DNA from: Longimicrobiales bacterium
GTDB taxonomy: Bacteria; Gemmatimonadota; Gemmatimonadetes; Longimicrobiales; Gaopeijiaceae
Direction of reading: 5' to 3'
Assembly (NCBI GenBank): GCA_951813395.1
Contig: OX638356.1
Coordinates: 3,484,501-3,548,500 of the forward strand
Length of the DNA stretch: 64,000 nucleotides
The notes under the pieces are model-generated. The model did not search any database and had not been told where the DNA came from. It saw only the letters and a program-made list of their open reading frames with translations. Position numbers and translations under genes: made by a program. Shown one piece after another: positions 41,754 through 48,900 of this stretch; position 1 is the first letter of the stretch, and the number at the start of each line of letters is the position of its first letter.

Positions 41754-42032
41754 ACGGCGAGCGGATCGGGACTGGGCGAGGGAGGGGGCCTCCCGTTTGA
41801 AACGCGGGCGCGGCCCGGGCAGAGGGCTGGAGGGGGGCTGGAGCGCGTCGATGGAGCGCCGGGCGGGCGGGCGGCGGTCAAGTTGGCGGGCGGGCGGGTG
41901 TTGGAGGGGTCGGCAGCGGGCGATGGAGCGGGTTGGCGGCGGGCGACGGAGCGGGTTGGCGGCGGGCGGGTCTGACAGCGGGCGGGCAGAGAGCGGGTGG
42001 CCGGTTGAGCCCGTCAGGCGGCTGGCCAATAG

Positions 42033-42080
42033 GGGCGCCCATTCGAGCATGCGGGTGTCCCGGGATTTGCCGCGGAAACG
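42033..42080 (+). repeat. dispersed repeat B, copy 1
   Basis: The core reads GTGTCCCGGGATTTGCCGCG, preceded by GCCCATTCGAGCATGC. Two other copies are at 42242-42291 (same strand) and 48908-48955 (opposite strand). The strong conservation of the core with variable flanks indicates a short mobile or recombinogenic repeat, REP-like in size. Confidence 0.6.
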
Positions 42081-42241
42081 TGGGGGTTGGGCGAGGCTGG
42101 CGGGTTGCGGGCGAATCCGCAGCGGGCGGGCCAGCAGCGGGCGGCGCGCCCAGCGGCGAGCGGGCCAACAGCTGGGTGGGGCTGGTTGCGGGTGGGGCTG
42201 ACGGCACGCGGGCATGGCAGCGGGTTTTGGACTGGCAGCGG

Positions 42242-42291
42242 GGCGGGCGCCCATACAAGCATGCCGGTGTCCCGGGATTTGCCGCGGAACC
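42242..42291 (+). repeat. dispersed repeat B, copy 2
   Basis: GCGCCCATACAAGCATGCC is followed by the same core GTGTCCCGGGATTTGCCGCG as in the copy 209 bases upstream. The two copies are separated by G-rich low-complexity DNA. Confidence 0.6.
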
Positions 42292-42299
42292 TCCATGGC

Positions 42300-42516
42300 C
42301 CTTCTGGCCACCCCATAGTCTGGAAACTAAGCTGGAGTCTGGGGACAGAGGTCGTAAGCGTTTCTGGTGCATTGAAAGCCCGACGCGGAACCTGACCTGG
42401 GCGTTCCGAGGGACCCCGTAGTGCTGACCGGCCCGAGCGGCCGCAATCGCGTATAGGAAATTCGACAACCATGAACGCCCTCCCCGATCCACTGGAGCCC
42501 GTGAAAGGAGGCGGGA
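42300..42516 (+). other. left end of the IS110-like element; possible bridge-RNA region
   Basis: In IS110-group elements the non-coding left end, before the recombinase gene, encodes the bridge RNA that specifies donor and target sites. The 200 bases before the chimeric gene have the position and size for that, and end with a strong ribosome-binding site (AAAGGAGG). I cannot fold it or fix its outer border by eye. Because the downstream gene lacks its C-terminal half, any RNA here is probably a relic. Confidence 0.3.
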
Positions 42517-43626
42517 ATGGATGTCATGATCGAACGGTGCGCGGGCCTCGACGTGCACAAGAAGACCGTGGTGGCGTGCGTTCGTACGCCGGGCAGGGAG
42601 GTGGCCGGCCGGCACAAGGCTGTCCGCACGTTCGCGACGACGCTGGCGGGACTGGAGGCGCTCCGGGAGTGGCTTCGGGGCAACGGCGTGACCCATGTGG
42701 CGATGGAGTCGACGGGCGTGTACTGGAGGCCGGTCTACGTCGTGCTTGAGGACGACTTCGAGCTGTTGCTCGTCAACGCCCGCCACATCAAGCACGTTCC
42801 GGGGAGGAAGACGGATGTCCGTGATTGCGAGTGGGTCGCGCGGCTGCTGGAGTGCGGCCTGCTCAGAGGGAGCTTCGTTCCGCCGCCGGAGATCCGCGAT
42901 CTGCGAGACCTGACCCGTCTGCGGAAGTCGCTGATCGGCGAGCGGAGCCGCCAGATCAACCGGGTGGCGAAGACGCTCGAGATGGCCAACATCAAGCTGG
43001 GCTCGGTCGTGACGGACATCATGGGGAAGACGGGGCGGGGGATCCTGGATGCTCTGGCGGCAGGCGTCGAAGCCCCGGAAGCGCTCGCCCGGCTGGCACA
43101 GGGGTCGCTGAAGAAGAAGCGCAAGGAGCTGGCCGAAGCTACCGCCGGCCGGATGACGGAACACTACCGCTTCATGCTGGGCCACCGAGCCCGGCTCTTC
43201 GGCGACGTCGTCGCCAAGATCTCCATCGTTGCCTTCGATGCCCTCGTCGCCCAGGTGATGGCCCGTGAACCCTACCGGTCCGCCGAGCGCGTCTTCTGGA
43301 TCGTCGATGGCGGCACGATCCATCGCGGCCAGCGCGCCGCCGACCGTCTCCAGGCACGGTTCGACAACCTCACCCTGGTGCATCTGCCCACGCACGCCAG
43401 CTGGATGAACCAGATCGAGATCTACTTCTCGATCCTCCAGCGCAAGGCACTCACCCCCGCCCACTTCTCTTCCCAGGACGCAGTCGCCGAGCGCATCCTC
43501 GACTTCCAGCAGCACTACCAACAAATCGCCTCGCCCTTCGAATGGAAGTTCACCCGCTGCGATCTCAACCGCCTCCTGGCCCGCTCGCCCACCCCCGCCC
43601 ATCCCTCACTCCGCGAAGCCGCATGA
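42517..43626 (+). CDS. chimeric transposase: IS110 N-terminal half fused to IS630 C-terminal part
   Basis: The 369-aa reading frame is uninterrupted and preceded by AAAGGAGG. Residues 1 to about 222 are an IS110 recombinase RuvC-like domain with its complete DEDD tetrad: Asp12 (AGLDVHKKTV), Glu64 (AMESTGVYW), Asp100 and Asp103 (GRKTDVRDCEWVA). The linker helices (LRDLTRLRKSLIGERSRQIN) follow. From about residue 226 (LFGDVVAKISIVAFDALVAQ) it is an IS630-type DDE transposase: WIVDGGTIHRGQRAADRLQA (Asp264), HASWMNQIEIYFSILQRKAL (Glu301), and the family tail FEWKFTRCDLNRLLAR. The IS110 C-terminal serine domain and the IS630 N-terminal half with its first Asp are absent. Neither activity is expected, yet the fusion is seamless and in frame. 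Confidence 0.85.
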   Translation: MDVMIERCAGLDVHKKTVVACVRTPGREVAGRHKAVRTFATTLAGLEALREWLRGNGVTHVAMESTGVYWRPVYVVLEDDFELLLVNARHIKHVPGRKTDVRDCEWVARLLECGLLRGSFVPPPEIRDLRDLTRLRKSLIGERSRQINRVAKTLEMANIKLGSVVTDIMGKTGRGILDALAAGVEAPEALARLAQGSLKKKRKELAEATAGRMTEHYRFMLGHRARLFGDVVAKISIVAFDALVAQVMAREPYRSAERVFWIVDGGTIHRGQRAADRLQARFDNLTLVHLPTHASWMNQIEIYFSILQRKALTPAHFSSQDAVAERILDFQQHYQQIASPFEWKFTRCDLNRLLARSPTPAHPSLREAA

Positions 43627-43630
43627 GAAT

Positions 43631-43659
43631 ACGTCACCGAACTTCTGAACCGGTGTACC
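43631..43659 (-). repeat. likely right end of an IS630-type element
   Basis: Just after the chimeric gene lies TCACCGAACTTCTGAACCGG and then TGTACC, followed by TA. IS630-type elements insert at TA and carry terminal repeats there; read inward it is GGTACACCGGTTCAGAAG. The matching left end is missing, as expected if the IS110 segment replaced it. The TA plus the first G of this end also form the TAG stop of the minus-strand neighbour. Confidence 0.45.
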
Positions 43660-45505
43660 TAGTCGGCATTGCGACGGGAACGAAACTCCTCCAGGGCCCG
43701 AGCGCGGATCTCCTCGAACCTATGCTTCAGATAGGGATTCGGCCCAAGGGCGGCGGGCTCGTACCGATCAATGAGCCAATTGCCAAGGGACTCCTCGCGG
43801 TACGAGCGGTCTTCCAGCCGGGCCATCAAGATGTCATGCAGGCGGATCCCAGCCGCGAGGAGTGTCTCCAGCGTCTCCACGTCTCCCACATCTGCCCATT
43901 GGACGGGCTTAGCCTTCGGACTCTGAAGCATCACTCGCCGCCGCGTCCGTTGCTCGACGAGCCCGTACACCATGAAGTCGTTGGGCATGGTCTCCAACGT
44001 AACGACCAACGGCAGGTAGCTCTCGATACGTGACGGATCGACACCCTTCTCCGCGAGATGTCCTTCCTCGATGAGCCGAATCGTACCGGCAAACTGTTCA
44101 GCGGAATCACCGATGATGTCGTCGATCTTGCCGGACAGCGCTCCGATGTCGCCGTCTCTCCAAACGGGAAGATGCAACAGCGTTGCCTTGGCCTCGATCA
44201 GCACCACCGAGCCCTCGTAGACGATCACTGCGTCGCATTTCTTCGAGCCCGGGAGCGCAGGGTTGTCCAGGAATTCCGGCCCAAGGTATCGGCCTGATCC
44301 CCTCGGAAAGACACGACGAAGCAATCTGTCGATGTAGTCCTCGAAAACAGGTCCCATGTAGCCGAGGAACCTCCCGCTCTCTCTGCGGTCTTGGAGCCCC
44401 GTCAGGAAAATGTGAAACAAGCCTCGGGTCATCTTCCGGTGGAGGGAAGCGACCGACGGGCAATACGCTTTACCGTCATGAACGACGACAGGTGTGTCTC
44501 CCAACGGTAGGGGATCGAAGACGCGTAGATCGTCCACCCCACAACCACGACTCATCAGTTTCTGGCGGAGTACGTCAGCCCGCTCGGAGAAAAGGGCGAA
44601 GACTGCCCTTTCCTCATCGGAACGCAGATTGAGTGCCTCAAGAAAGGTGTCGACCGTCAGAAGCACCTTCGGGTGGTCGGTCTCTGTATTCGCAAGAGCA
44701 CCGAACATCGCCACGCTGGCTAGGGCGGGTGCGACATGGGTGATTCGCTCAAACAGCGCCAGCAGGTCGACGTAGCCGGCCTTGCTGCGTAGGTGCTGAC
44801 GGTCAGTTAGGTACAGGTCATGCGCGCGAGCGATGGCATGTTTGAAATTGCCGCCGTCGTGGAACAGCCGATTCGGCACGACATACCTGACCCATCGCAG
44901 AAGGTCGGCTCGTTCACGGATGCCTTGGGGCAACTCGTGGCTTCTCGTGTGCGTGGCGAGCAAATCGTTGACCATTAGCAGGGCCTCGCCGAACGCTTGG
45001 AGAGTAGCCGGGCCGCTTGCGGAGGCTGGAGGTACTTCGAGAAGTGCGATCTTGGCCGCGGTCACAACCTGAAGTTCGTGGAACACCTTGACAATCGGTG
45101 GAGCACCGAACTCTGAATCTGCGACCCTTGCGCGCCAAGCCTCGATATCGTTTTCGAGTTGGCCGGGGTCGTCAAACACACGGGAGATGAGCTCGCGCTG
45201 GGGCTTGATAGCGTCGTGATCCCCAGGCATCGAGATCCTCCAACTGATCGCGCCGAGGGTCGCGAGAACCATTTCGAGCCCGTAAGGCCGAAACCTTGCC
45301 ACGACATCATCATAGGTTGGAGCTGACCCGTGCAGGTCGGACCAAGATACGGAACTTGGGAGTTGTCCATAACGCTTGGTGTAAGATCGGAAGTCTGTTG
45401 GCCGTGACCCAGAGAATTGCGCAAGGGCAGGAAGAGGCCGCTTGCAGGGGAGCGATAGAAGGCGTAGTCGGGCTTGGGGAGCGGATCCCACGGGTCGTTG
45501 GTCAT
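43659..45505 (-). pseudogene. unrecognised protein with PD-(D/E)XK-like motif; apparent frameshift near the N-terminus
   Basis: I do not recognise the family. The main frame covers about 580 residues. Its C-terminal third has GSKKCDAVIVYEGSVVLIEAKAT, a good D-x(n)-ExK nuclease core (cut here: Asp in KKCDAVIVY, Glu and Lys in IEAKAT). The N-terminus seems to begin in another frame at ATG 45505 (MTNDPWDPLPKPDYAFYRSP, then LFLPLRNSLG) and to switch at a GGG run near 45410 into SRPTDFRSYTKRYGQ; one extra G would join them. If real, the gene is frameshifted; if not, translation starts inside. Its last codons touch the IS630-like end. Codon use is less GC-biased than neighbours, suggesting transfer. 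A role in DNA defence is a guess from the nuclease motif and the mobile setting. Confidence 0.6.
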
Positions 45506-45758
45506 GCGCGTCGTACGATCCGGTTAGACTGAAGGACTGCTGGTCGCGGCAGATGGGAGTAAAAGGTCGAGAACTCCGCGTCGTGAGGCAATCTACTGGG
45601 CAGCGGGAACGACAGCGGTGCGGCATCTGTCTCCCGAGTCAGTGTTCGGTCGGGCCTACGCGGAGGACGCCGCTGCGGAATGCTTGCGTAGTGCGCCGAT
45701 TTCAGCGACTTGGATCGGACGGCTGGATCGCTGGGCCACTTGGGCACAGATGGCGTGG

Positions 45759-45876
45759 AGGAGTCCCGCCATTCTAATCCGGTTTTCCCGCTTTCGCGGC
45801 ACGGTCCAGCAAGATCCAGTAGCACGACAGAAAGCGCAGATCGTGCGGCCCTGTAAGTAGTTAGACGATCTTCTGC
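45759..45876. repeat. 118-bp dispersed repeat, copy 2 (occupied by IS1111 element)
   Basis: This copy matches 10734-10851 over its full 118 bases and stops exactly where the IS1111-group element begins. The homology resumes on the far side at 47285 (CGTGATTC). It is the target site of the element. No coding capacity is evident. Confidence 0.6.
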
Positions 45877-45968
45877 CGATGGAGTGGACGCCCCCTCCCG
45901 GCGGCATCGCAATGTGCCAAGATGGTACTGAAGCGATTAGTCGACCATCTGAGGGAGGAGAGATCCAC

Positions 45969-46991
45969 ATGGAAGAGGTTAGCATCATCGGGATCGATCT
46001 GGCAAAGCGCAGCTTTCAGGTACACGGGGCGAGGGCGGACGGGTCGGTGGCGTACCGCAGAAAGCTGAGCCGGGGGAAGCTGCTGGGCTTTCTCGCCTCG
46101 CAACCGGGGTGTACGGTAGCGATGGAGGCGTGCGCCAGCGCCCACTACTGGGGCCGGGAGATCACATCGCTCGGCCACGAGGTGAGGCTGGTTCCCCCAA
46201 TCTACGTAAAGCCCTTTGTCAAGCGGCAGAAAAATGACGCTGCGGACGCGGAGGCGATCACGGAAGCGGCGCGGCGTCCGACCATGCACTTCGTGGCGGT
46301 CAAGTCAGAAGCCCAGCAGGCGCAGGGGATGCTCTTTCACACGCGTGACCTGCTGGTGCGCCAGCGCACGCAGACGATCAACGCGCTTCGGGGTCACCTG
46401 GCCGAGTACGGCGTGGTCGCTCCGCAGGGCAGAGCCCGGATCGGGGACTTGGCCGGAGTGCTGGAAGATGTGGACTCCGGCCTGCCGGGGGCGGTCGCCG
46501 AGCTGGGCCGGCTGCTGCTCGGGCGGATCGACGAGCTCAACGACAAGATCGATGGACTCGACCGGAAGATCCGGACGAGCGCGCGGGAGAACGAAGAGAC
46601 GGCGCGCCTGATGACGATCCCGGGAGTCGGGCCGGTCACCGCGATGGCACTGCAGGCCTTCGCACCGCCCATGGAGAGCTTCCGGTGCGGACGCGACTTC
46701 TCGGCCTGGCTCGGCCTCGTGCCGCGGCAGCACACGACCGGCGGCAAGCCGAGGCTGGGCAGGATATCGAAGATGGGCCAGCGAGACCTGAGACGCCTCC
46801 TGGTCATGGGAGCCATGACTGTTGTTCGGCACGCGAGCCGGCGCGGCGAGATCACGGATCGTTGGCTGGCCGGGATGTTGGCGCGCAAGCCGAAGATGGT
46901 GGTCGCGGTGGCGCTCGCCAACAGGACGGCGCGGAGGGTCTGGGCGCTGGCCACAAGGAAGGAGACCTATCAAGTTCGCACCGCCGCCTGA
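45969..46991 (+). CDS. IS1111-group (IS110 family) DEDD recombinase
   Basis: The 340-aa recombinase starts after GGGAGGAG. The RuvC-like domain carries Asp10 (IIGIDLAKRSFQVHG), Glu53 (VAMEACASAHYWGRE), Asp90 and Asp93 (QKNDAADAEAITEA). A coiled linker (LLLGRIDELNDKIDGLDRKI) leads to the Transposase_20 domain: MTIPGVGPVTAMALQAFA, then CGRDFSAWLGLVPRQHTTGG with the conserved Ser, and GRISKMGQRDLRRLLVMGA. All parts needed for RNA-guided recombination are present, in contrast to the chimera 2 kb upstream. The element should be competent to move. Confidence 0.93.
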   Translation: MEEVSIIGIDLAKRSFQVHGARADGSVAYRRKLSRGKLLGFLASQPGCTVAMEACASAHYWGREITSLGHEVRLVPPIYVKPFVKRQKNDAADAEAITEAARRPTMHFVAVKSEAQQAQGMLFHTRDLLVRQRTQTINALRGHLAEYGVVAPQGRARIGDLAGVLEDVDSGLPGAVAELGRLLLGRIDELNDKIDGLDRKIRTSARENEETARLMTIPGVGPVTAMALQAFAPPMESFRCGRDFSAWLGLVPRQHTTGGKPRLGRISKMGQRDLRRLLVMGAMTVVRHASRRGEITDRWLAGMLARKPKMVVAVALANRTARRVWALATRKETYQVRTAA

Positions 46992-47281
46992 GCGGTCGGC
47001 GAAAGGAGAGAAGCGAAAAGCAGAGAAGCTGACGGGAGAAGTGGGCAGTAGGACGGAAGGAACGGGGTAAGGGCAAACGGTCGACAAGACGGGGTCGGAA
47101 AAACCAGTGAATCACGGAGGGCCTATGAGCCCGGCCTGCCGATTTGGATCCGATCTCACGAACACCATACGGGCCCGCGGCCACAGATGGCTGCATCAAG
47201 AGGCCGGACATACGACAGTACCTGACCAGACTGCCACCAACTCGGTTCCGAAGACACGCTTGCCCACCCGGGGGCGTCCAC
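46992..47281 (+). ncRNA. candidate bridge RNA region of the IS1111 element
   Basis: In the IS1111 group the guide (bridge) RNA is encoded between the recombinase gene and the right end. Here 290 non-coding bases follow the stop codon: first a purine-rich run (GGCGAAAGGAGAGAAGCG), then mixed sequence including GGATCCGATCTCACGAACAC and CAAGAGGCCGGACATACGAC. The location and size agree with known cases. I could not fold it or match its loops to the target by eye, so the exact RNA limits are unknown. Confidence 0.45.
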
Positions 47282-47284
47282 ATA

Positions 47285-47634
47285 CGTGATTCTGGCCTCT
47301 GGCGATCCGCTGGGGGGAGGGCGGTCCGCCGGACCACCAACCCGCCGGCCGGTTCTCAAGCCAACGCCTGTCCCAAAACGCGGGAACGCAGTCCCATCCA
47401 GCTATGGACGGGTTCTGAAATGGCGGTTTCGGTGAGGTCCCGGACCTCTGCCACAATGGCCGCCAGGGGCCACAGGATGCCCCGGGCGGGGCGATCGGCG
47501 GTGCGGGACCCATTCGAAGCCGTCCCGAGGCGAGTTTTCGTGTCCTGGGCCATTACAGAGGGCCGAAAAACGGTAGTTAACTTATGGGGACAAATGCTAA
47601 CCCTTTGCCGGAACCCTACTTGGAGGATCAGAAC
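47285..47634. other. intergenic region upstream of the HNH gene
   Basis: The first 30 or so bases continue the target-site homology seen at 10852-10885. The remainder has no gene I would defend; a 65-codon minus-strand frame (47553-47356) lacks a ribosome-binding site. The last 60 bases are AT-richer (GGTAGTTAACTTATGGGG) and probably hold the promoter of the HNH gene. Confidence 0.4.
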
Positions 47635-48900
47635 ATGACCATCGCCCAACTTGGCGAGCGTATCGTCGAACTCGCCGCACGGATCAACATCGCCACCTAC
47701 GAGATGCTCACCCTCATCGCCGAGTTCGACCGTCGCGAGGGGTGGGCCGACGCCTTCAACTCCTGCGCCGAGTGGCTCGCCTGGAGCACCGGACGCACGC
47801 TCGGCACCTGCCGCGAGAACGTGCGGGTCGCCCACGCGCTACAGGACCTGCCCAAGACCTCGGCCGAGATGGAGGCCGGGCGGCTCTCCTACACCAAGGT
47901 GCGGGCGATCACCCGGGTGGCCACGAAGGCAACGGAAGGTGAACTGCTCGAACTGGCCGACAAGGTCTCCGCCGCCGAGCTCGAGCGGAGGGTGCGGGGA
48001 TGGCGGCACCTGTCGCGCGACGGCGAGTTGACGGCCGAGGAGGTGCGGCACCAGCGGCGCGCGTTCTCGGTGGTGATCGACGCCGACGGGACGTACGTGG
48101 TGCGCGGAAGGCTCGAGCCCGAGGCGGGGGCCGTGCTGATGCGGGCGATCGAGGCCGCAACGGACGCGCTGTACCGGGGCGAGGACCCCGCGGCGCGGCC
48201 GACGAGCCGCCAGCGCAGGGCCGATGCGGCGGGACTGGTGGCCGAGCGGGCGCTGGCGGCGGGGCTGAAGGCGGCGCACAGCGGGACGCGGGCCGAGCGG
48301 TACCAGGTGACGGTGCATGCCGAGATGGCCACGCTGGAGGAGCACGGCGAGGGTGGCCGGTCGGAGGTCGACGGGGTGCGGGTGAGCGCGGAGACGTCGC
48401 GGCGCATGGCGTGCGATGCGTCGCTGGTGCAAATGCTGCACCGGGAGGGGAAGGTAGTCAGCGTGGGGCGGAAGACGCGGACGATCCCGCCGCACCTCAG
48501 GCGCGCGCTCGAGGAGCGGGACCGGGGCTGCCGGTATCCGGGCTGCGGGGGCCGGTTCACGGAGGCGCATCATGTCAGGCACTGGGCCGACGGCGGGGAG
48601 ACGAGTCTGGCGAACACGGTGCTGCTCTGCCGGCGGCACCACCGGCTCGTGCACGAAGGGCGGGTGCGGATGGCGCTCGACGCGAAGGGTCAGGCGGTGT
48701 TCTTCACGCGCGGCGGCAAGATGCTGGGGAGCGTGCCGCCGCCGGTGAACGAGCCGAAGCTGACGCCGGCCCTGCCCCCCGCCCCACCGCTTCGGCCCGG
48801 GCAGATGTACAACGGCGCGGCCCGGCTCGCGGCCGGGGCGGTCCCGTGGGAGATCGAGGCCGCGGCGAGGGAGGCCGTCGAGGCAGGCGCCGGCGGGTGA
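47635..48900 (+). CDS. DUF222/HNH endonuclease-like protein (13E12 repeat family)
   Basis: The 421-aa protein starts at ATG 47635 with GGAGGA upstream; an earlier in-frame ATG at 47584 is less supported. The N-terminal DUF222 region is helical (EMLTLIAEFDRREGWADAFN, RAITRVATKATEGELLELAD). The C-terminal HNH domain is complete: RGCRYPGCGGRFTEAHHVRH, then WADGGETSLANTVLLCRRHH, RLVHEG, with Cys pairs and the HH...N...H catalytic/metal residues. Members are often multicopy and carried near mobile elements; the cellular role is not established. A Pro-rich tail (LTPALPPAPPLRPG) ends the protein. Downstream are the third copy of repeat B and a tandem repeat. Confidence 0.87.
   Translation: MTIAQLGERIVELAARINIATYEMLTLIAEFDRREGWADAFNSCAEWLAWSTGRTLGTCRENVRVAHALQDLPKTSAEMEAGRLSYTKVRAITRVATKATEGELLELADKVSAAELERRVRGWRHLSRDGELTAEEVRHQRRAFSVVIDADGTYVVRGRLEPEAGAVLMRAIEAATDALYRGEDPAARPTSRQRRADAAGLVAERALAAGLKAAHSGTRAERYQVTVHAEMATLEEHGEGGRSEVDGVRVSAETSRRMACDASLVQMLHREGKVVSVGRKTRTIPPHLRRALEERDRGCRYPGCGGRFTEAHHVRHWADGGETSLANTVLLCRRHHRLVHEGRVRMALDAKGQAVFFTRGGKMLGSVPPPVNEPKLTPALPPAPPLRPGQMYNGAARLAAGAVPWEIEAAAREAVEAGAGG

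What the first reader, a model, noticed from the sequence alone, without database searches (positions are those of the whole stretch)
42517..43659. In-frame chimera of an IS110 recombinase and an IS630 transposase
A single intact 369-codon gene joins the complete DEDD catalytic domain of an IS110 recombinase (Asp12, Glu64, Asp100, Asp103) to the last third of an IS630 DDE transposase (Asp264, Glu301). The junction lies around codons 222-228. These families use unrelated chemistry, one RNA-guided recombination and the other cut-and-paste at TA. The fusion is seamless, has a strong ribosome-binding site, and ends at what looks like an IS630 terminal repeat. It either arose by IS110 inserting into an IS630 copy followed by deletion, or is a new protein with a retained RuvC-like domain.
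Basis: partly seen in the sequence, partly recalled or inferred. Interest (0 to 1): 0.75.

Follow-up and report, generated by a model that had tools for sequence, protein, structure and literature searches.

The report
Accidental fusion of two transposon remnants
A deletion between two neighbouring, very young mobile elements left the front half of one transposase gene joined in frame to the back third of another; the joint is real in the assembly, but the product lacks essential parts of both enzymes and looks like debris rather than a new protein.

Summary
Window 42517-43626 is one open frame of 369 codons: IS110 DEDD domain (PF01548, 3e-28), then the end of an IS630 DDE domain (PF13358, 3.3e-11). 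The same genome supplies both parents intact. Four 1,545-bp IS110 copies match the left half; two of them match at 894/894 bases (42290-43183). Seven IS630 copies (1,282 bp counting their flanking CTAG) match the right part (43182-43662), the closest differing only by one extra C at the terminus. The halves meet at codons 222/223 over a 2-bp overlap, CC (43182-43183). Each outer end is a normal insertion boundary. The IS110 left end sits in its usual dispersed repeat. The IS630 right end sits on a CTAG that overlaps the stop codon of the next gene. Neither element lies inside the other. Simplest history: two adjacent insertions, then a deletion of at least 1.45 kb removing the IS110 Tnp/serine domain and right end, and the IS630 HTH, first catalytic Asp and left end. 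The protein therefore lacks required parts of both chemistries, and neither remnant has both ends. No second copy was found in 121 family genomes, 395 phylum genomes, or a genome-collection scan. Assembly error is unlikely but untested without reads.

The parts
42048..42077 (+). unoccupied copy of the dispersed repeat that IS110 uses as its target (continues GCCGCGGAA|ACGTGG)
   Evidence: pattern found at 20 places in the genome, 0 in the reversed-pattern control; sequence
42260..42289 (+). left half of the IS110 target repeat at this insertion, ending in GCCGCGGAA
   Evidence: same left flank at all four intact IS110 copies
42290..42516 (+). IS110 left non-coding end, 227 bp, where the IS110 group carries its bridge RNA
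   Evidence: same length in all four intact copies; bridge RNA not recognised by Rfam; two 7-nt matches ending at the GGAA core, CGCGGAA at 42384 (target) and ATAGGAA at 42453 (donor), are suggestive only
42290..43183 (+). truncated IS110 element, 894 of 1,545 bp, right end missing
   Evidence: 0 mismatches to copies L003 and L005; 4 and 3 to L002 and L004
42517..43626 (+). 369-codon chimeric ORF: IS110 residues 1-222 + IS630 residues 223-369
43182..43183 (.). junction with 2-bp overlap (CC) between the two elements
   Evidence: direct alignment with intact IS110 (GGGCC|GGC) and intact IS630 (GTCC|ACC)
43182..43662 (+). truncated IS630 element: last 480 of 1,282 bp (CTAG counted) plus one extra C; left end, HTH and first catalytic Asp missing
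   Evidence: 0 mismatches to copy L013 before the terminus; one extra C next to the terminus relative to all seven copies
43659..43662 (.). CTAG target of the IS630 insertion, overlapping the stop codon of the downstream minus-strand gene
   Evidence: all intact IS630 copies lie between CTAG ends; the homologue in relative G020 also ends ...GCCGACTAG with no IS630 matching there
43659..45626 (-). flanking gene, 655 aa, no Pfam match; marks the right flank as non-IS110 DNA
   Evidence: relatives in 9 other genomes of the genus

Best explanation
This is a recent deletion scar between two neighbouring insertion sequences lying in the same orientation. An IS110 element inserted at its usual repeat (left end at 42290). 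An IS630 element inserted independently at a CTAG at the end of the downstream gene (right end at 43658). A later deletion of at least about 1.45 kb, with 2 bp of shared sequence at its ends, removed the back of the IS110 and the front of the IS630 and happened to keep the reading frame. The identities and boundaries are shown; the order of events and the end-joining or slippage mechanism are inferred. The encoded protein should be inactive for both reactions. It has the IS110 RuvC-like and coiled-coil part without the Tnp domain that carries the catalytic serine, and two of the three IS630 catalytic acids without the first Asp or the DNA-binding domain. Neither remnant has both ends, so neither can move as a unit.
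For: Intact parents in the same genome: 4 copies of the 410-aa IS110 and 7 copies of the IS630 with its 321-aa frame. DNA identity 894/894 to two IS110 copies, and no mismatch to IS630 copy L013 before the terminal extra C. The junction is a 2-bp overlap with no other homology. Both outer boundaries are canonical for each element, and the missing inner ends are nowhere else in the window. The intact IS110 parent has Transposase_20 at 254-339 and the intact IS630 parent has DDE_3 from profile position 5 plus a sub-threshold HTH_32; the chimera has neither Transposase_20, nor HTH_32, nor the start of DDE_3. The fusion occurs once in the genome and in no other genome searched. In IS621 the RuvC domain needs S241 of the Tnp domain to form the active site (PMC11208158).
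Against: No private substitutions mark the fused copy, so its reality as a chromosome feature rests on the assembly. The DNA originally between the elements is not known, so the deletion is inferred; no relative carries the two flanks next to each other. The extra C beside the IS630 terminus (43658/43659) is not explained by a standard insertion.
Confidence: 0.9

Rival explanations
1. Assembly artefact: a chimeric join between an IS110 copy and an IS630 copy.
For: Both halves belong to multi-copy repeats and show no private substitutions.
Against: The two elements share only 2 bp at the junction, so repeat confusion would not create the join. The genome is one contig with different flanks on each side. 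Both outer boundaries are canonical, and the IS630 end carries one extra base not seen in the other copies.
Confidence: 0.06
2. A functional new protein, for instance an inhibitor of the intact IS110 copies: the retained RuvC-like and coiled-coil part could pair with full-length recombinase, or bind its bridge RNA, without cutting.
For: The frame is open, the IS110 ribosome-binding site is intact, and four intact IS110 copies are present as possible partners. In IS621 the coiled coil mediates dimerisation (PMC11208158).
Against: Single copy, no conservation, too young for selection to show. No sigma-70-like promoter was found. In IS110 elements a promoter is rebuilt across the joined right and left ends of the circle (PMC11208160), and the right end is missing here.
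Confidence: 0.03
3. IS110 inserted into an IS630 copy, followed by deletion.
For: The two elements are adjacent and truncated.
Against: The IS110 left flank is its usual dispersed repeat rather than IS630 DNA, and no IS630 left end lies upstream; no IS110 right end lies downstream.
Confidence: 0.01

Closest known systems
IS110 family, IS110 group (IS621-like RNA-guided recombinase)
   Same: N-terminal 222 residues identical to an intact 410-aa IS110 recombinase of the same genome; DEDD motif; 227-bp left non-coding end; insertion in a dispersed repeat
   Different: Tnp domain with the catalytic serine, and the right end, are gone
IS630/Tc1-mariner family (e.g. ISY100)
   Same: C-terminal 147 residues identical to the intact IS630 transposase of the same genome; GTGTAC terminus at CTAG/TA
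   Different: HTH, first catalytic Asp and left end are gone

Membership tests
IS110 recombinase | DEDD RuvC-like domain (PF01548) | tested here: met
   9-155, 3e-28; D12/E64/D100/D103 present
IS110 recombinase | Tnp domain with catalytic serine (PF02371) | tested here: not met
   absent from the chimera, present in the intact parent at 254-339
IS110 element | both ends with core, at a specific target | tested here: not met
   left end only; no right end in the window
IS110 element | bridge RNA in the left non-coding end | tested here: inconclusive
   no Rfam match; 7-nt matches to target and donor, which chance can give
IS630 transposase | complete DDE triad | tested here: not met
   D264 and E301 present; first Asp (ISADEK in the parent) lost; DDE_3 covered from profile position 62 by the tail (parent from 5)
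IS630 transposase | N-terminal HTH DNA-binding domain | tested here: not met
   lies in the deleted part; the parent has only a sub-threshold HTH_32 match, 24.1 bits against a cut-off of 33.7
IS630 element | two terminal inverted repeats flanked by TA (here CTAG) | tested here: not met
   right terminus only

The most novel reading that the evidence does not exclude
The in-frame fusion is expressed and acts in trans as a dominant-negative of the intact IS110 copies through its retained RuvC-like and coiled-coil part.
Probability: 0.02. Interest if true: 0.45.

Novelty: new member of a known kind. Interest (0 to 1): 0.1.

Why it matters
As a protein it probably does not matter. It illustrates how recent deletions between adjacent insertion sequences in a GC-rich genome can leave long, clean-looking chimeric ORFs that annotation may read as new domain architectures. 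The parents identified on the way are more useful: an IS110 with exact ends, a natural target repeat present at 20 sites and a 227-bp left end.

Tried and rejected
Rfam for a bridge RNA or other RNA at 41800-43800: nothing. Exact 41-base junction in genome contigs: nothing, though the window's own genome may be left out there. Plasmid tblastn: the one record covering at least 80% (NZ_CP108048, 35% identity, one piece) is annotated as an IS110 family transposase; its domains were not checked. Phage tblastn: at most 64% coverage, 4 records. IS110 nested in IS630, or IS630 nested in IS110: rejected because the outer flanks are not the other element. The downstream gene as a reference for the deleted DNA: relatives keep the gene but not next to the left-hand gene, so the original spacing could not be recovered. 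Full-text search for an IS110-IS630 chimeric transposase: 90 papers hold at least two of the three terms; the 15 listed do not contain 'chimeric transposase'.

Full report
Observation. Window 42517-43626 encodes 369 residues in one frame without a stop. The named catalytic residues are all present at the stated positions. Pfam finds DEDD_Tnp_IS110 in residues 9-155 and DDE_3 in 222-322, both above their curated cut-offs; NCBIfam finds IS110 up to residue 221 and IS630 from 236, the IS630 match below its whole-protein cut-off.

Parents. A search of the window's own genome (one contig, 4,091,820 bases) finds this fusion once, four intact IS110 copies that match it to codon 222, and seven intact IS630 copies that match codons 223-369, six at 100% and one at 99%. 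The IS110 element is 1,545 bp and encodes 410 aa; the IS630 element is 1,282 bp, counting the flanking CTAG, with a 321-aa frame preceded by a separate HTH-like ORF in another frame. The IS110 half (42290-43183) has 0 mismatches in 894 bases to two copies. The IS630 part has no mismatch to one copy apart from one extra C next to the terminus.

Junction. The sequence reads CTTCATGCTGGG-CC-ACCGAGCCCGG. Intact IS110 reads CTTCATGCTGGGCCGGCATC and intact IS630 reads GACGTCCACCGAGCCCGG. The two share only CC at 43182-43183. An in-frame result is expected in one of three such deletions; joined in the other two frames the ORF would still have run 246 or 249 codons, because GC-rich DNA has few stops.

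Outer boundaries. All four intact IS110 copies start after ...TTTGCCGCGGAA and end in ...CATAGGAA before ACG, which is how the unoccupied repeat continues (GCCGCGGAA|ACGTGG at 42069-42083). This repeat pattern occurs at 20 places in the genome, five of them at the left end of this IS110, the fused copy included. All IS630 copies lie between CTAG...CTAG ends; the fused copy ends GTGTAC-CTAG, one C more than the others. The CTAG overlaps the stop codon of the downstream minus-strand gene, and a relative of that gene in G020 ends with the same GCCGACTAG. No IS110 right end and no IS630 left end exist elsewhere in the window. So neither element was inserted into the other.

Mechanism. Two adjacent insertions in the same orientation, then one deletion of at least 651 + 802 = 1,453 bp plus whatever lay between, is the shortest history. 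End joining or replication slippage at 2 bp is inferred.

Activity. In IS621 the RuvC domain spans residues 1-122, the coiled coil 123-188 and the Tnp domain 189-326, and the active site is composite, with D11/E60/D105 and S241 of the Tnp domain (PMC11208158). The fused protein lacks Transposase_20. On the IS630 side, ISY100 shows that the N-terminal HTH domain binds the inverted repeats and the C-terminal domain is the DDE catalytic domain (PMC2170065); here the HTH and the first Asp are missing. In IS110 elements a promoter is rebuilt across the joined right and left ends of the circle (PMC11208160); the right end is lost here and no sigma-70-like promoter was found. The DNA is identical to the parents, so there has been no time for selection to leave a mark.

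Distribution. No full-length match to the fusion was found in 23 genomes of the genus, 121 of the family or 395 of the phylum other than the window's own (some genomes overlap between these sets), nor the exact junction in genome contigs. No convincing fusion appeared in plasmids or phages; one Streptomyces plasmid hit covers 91% of the query at 35% identity and is annotated as an IS110 transposase.

Verdict. It is best filed as a young IS-IS deletion scar with an incidental ORF. The remaining doubt is assembly error, which only reads can exclude.

Noticed in passing
window 42048-42077 and 42260-42289; 20 places in the genome: A dispersed repeat (CATGCNNGTGTCCCNGNNTTTGCCGCGGAA|ACG) is the insertion target of the 1,545-bp IS110: all four intact copies and the truncated one follow it in the same orientation. 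Matches of about 40-55 bp to this repeat region also appear in most genomes of the genus. It resembles the REP targeting of IS621.
   Followed up: partly
window 42384-42393 and 42453-42459: The IS110 left end contains CGCGGAACCT (matches target left half plus core) and ATAGGAA (matches the donor left side plus core), possible bridge-RNA guides; each 7-nt match could be chance.
   Followed up: partly
window 45879-46991 (+): A second IS110-family gene of a different subgroup, 370 aa, with complete DEDD and Transposase_20 domains.
   Followed up: no
window 42290-47366: In relative G019 DNA matching 47367-47998 follows the left-hand gene and its repeats almost directly, so the stretch between may be an island specific to this lineage.
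   Followed up: no
window 43659-45626 (-): A 655-aa protein with no Pfam match, related to proteins in nine other genomes of the genus at 36-76% identity.
   Followed up: no
window 41878-43602 (-): A 574-codon antisense ORF overlaps the chimera; an effect of GC-rich DNA rather than a gene.
   Followed up: no
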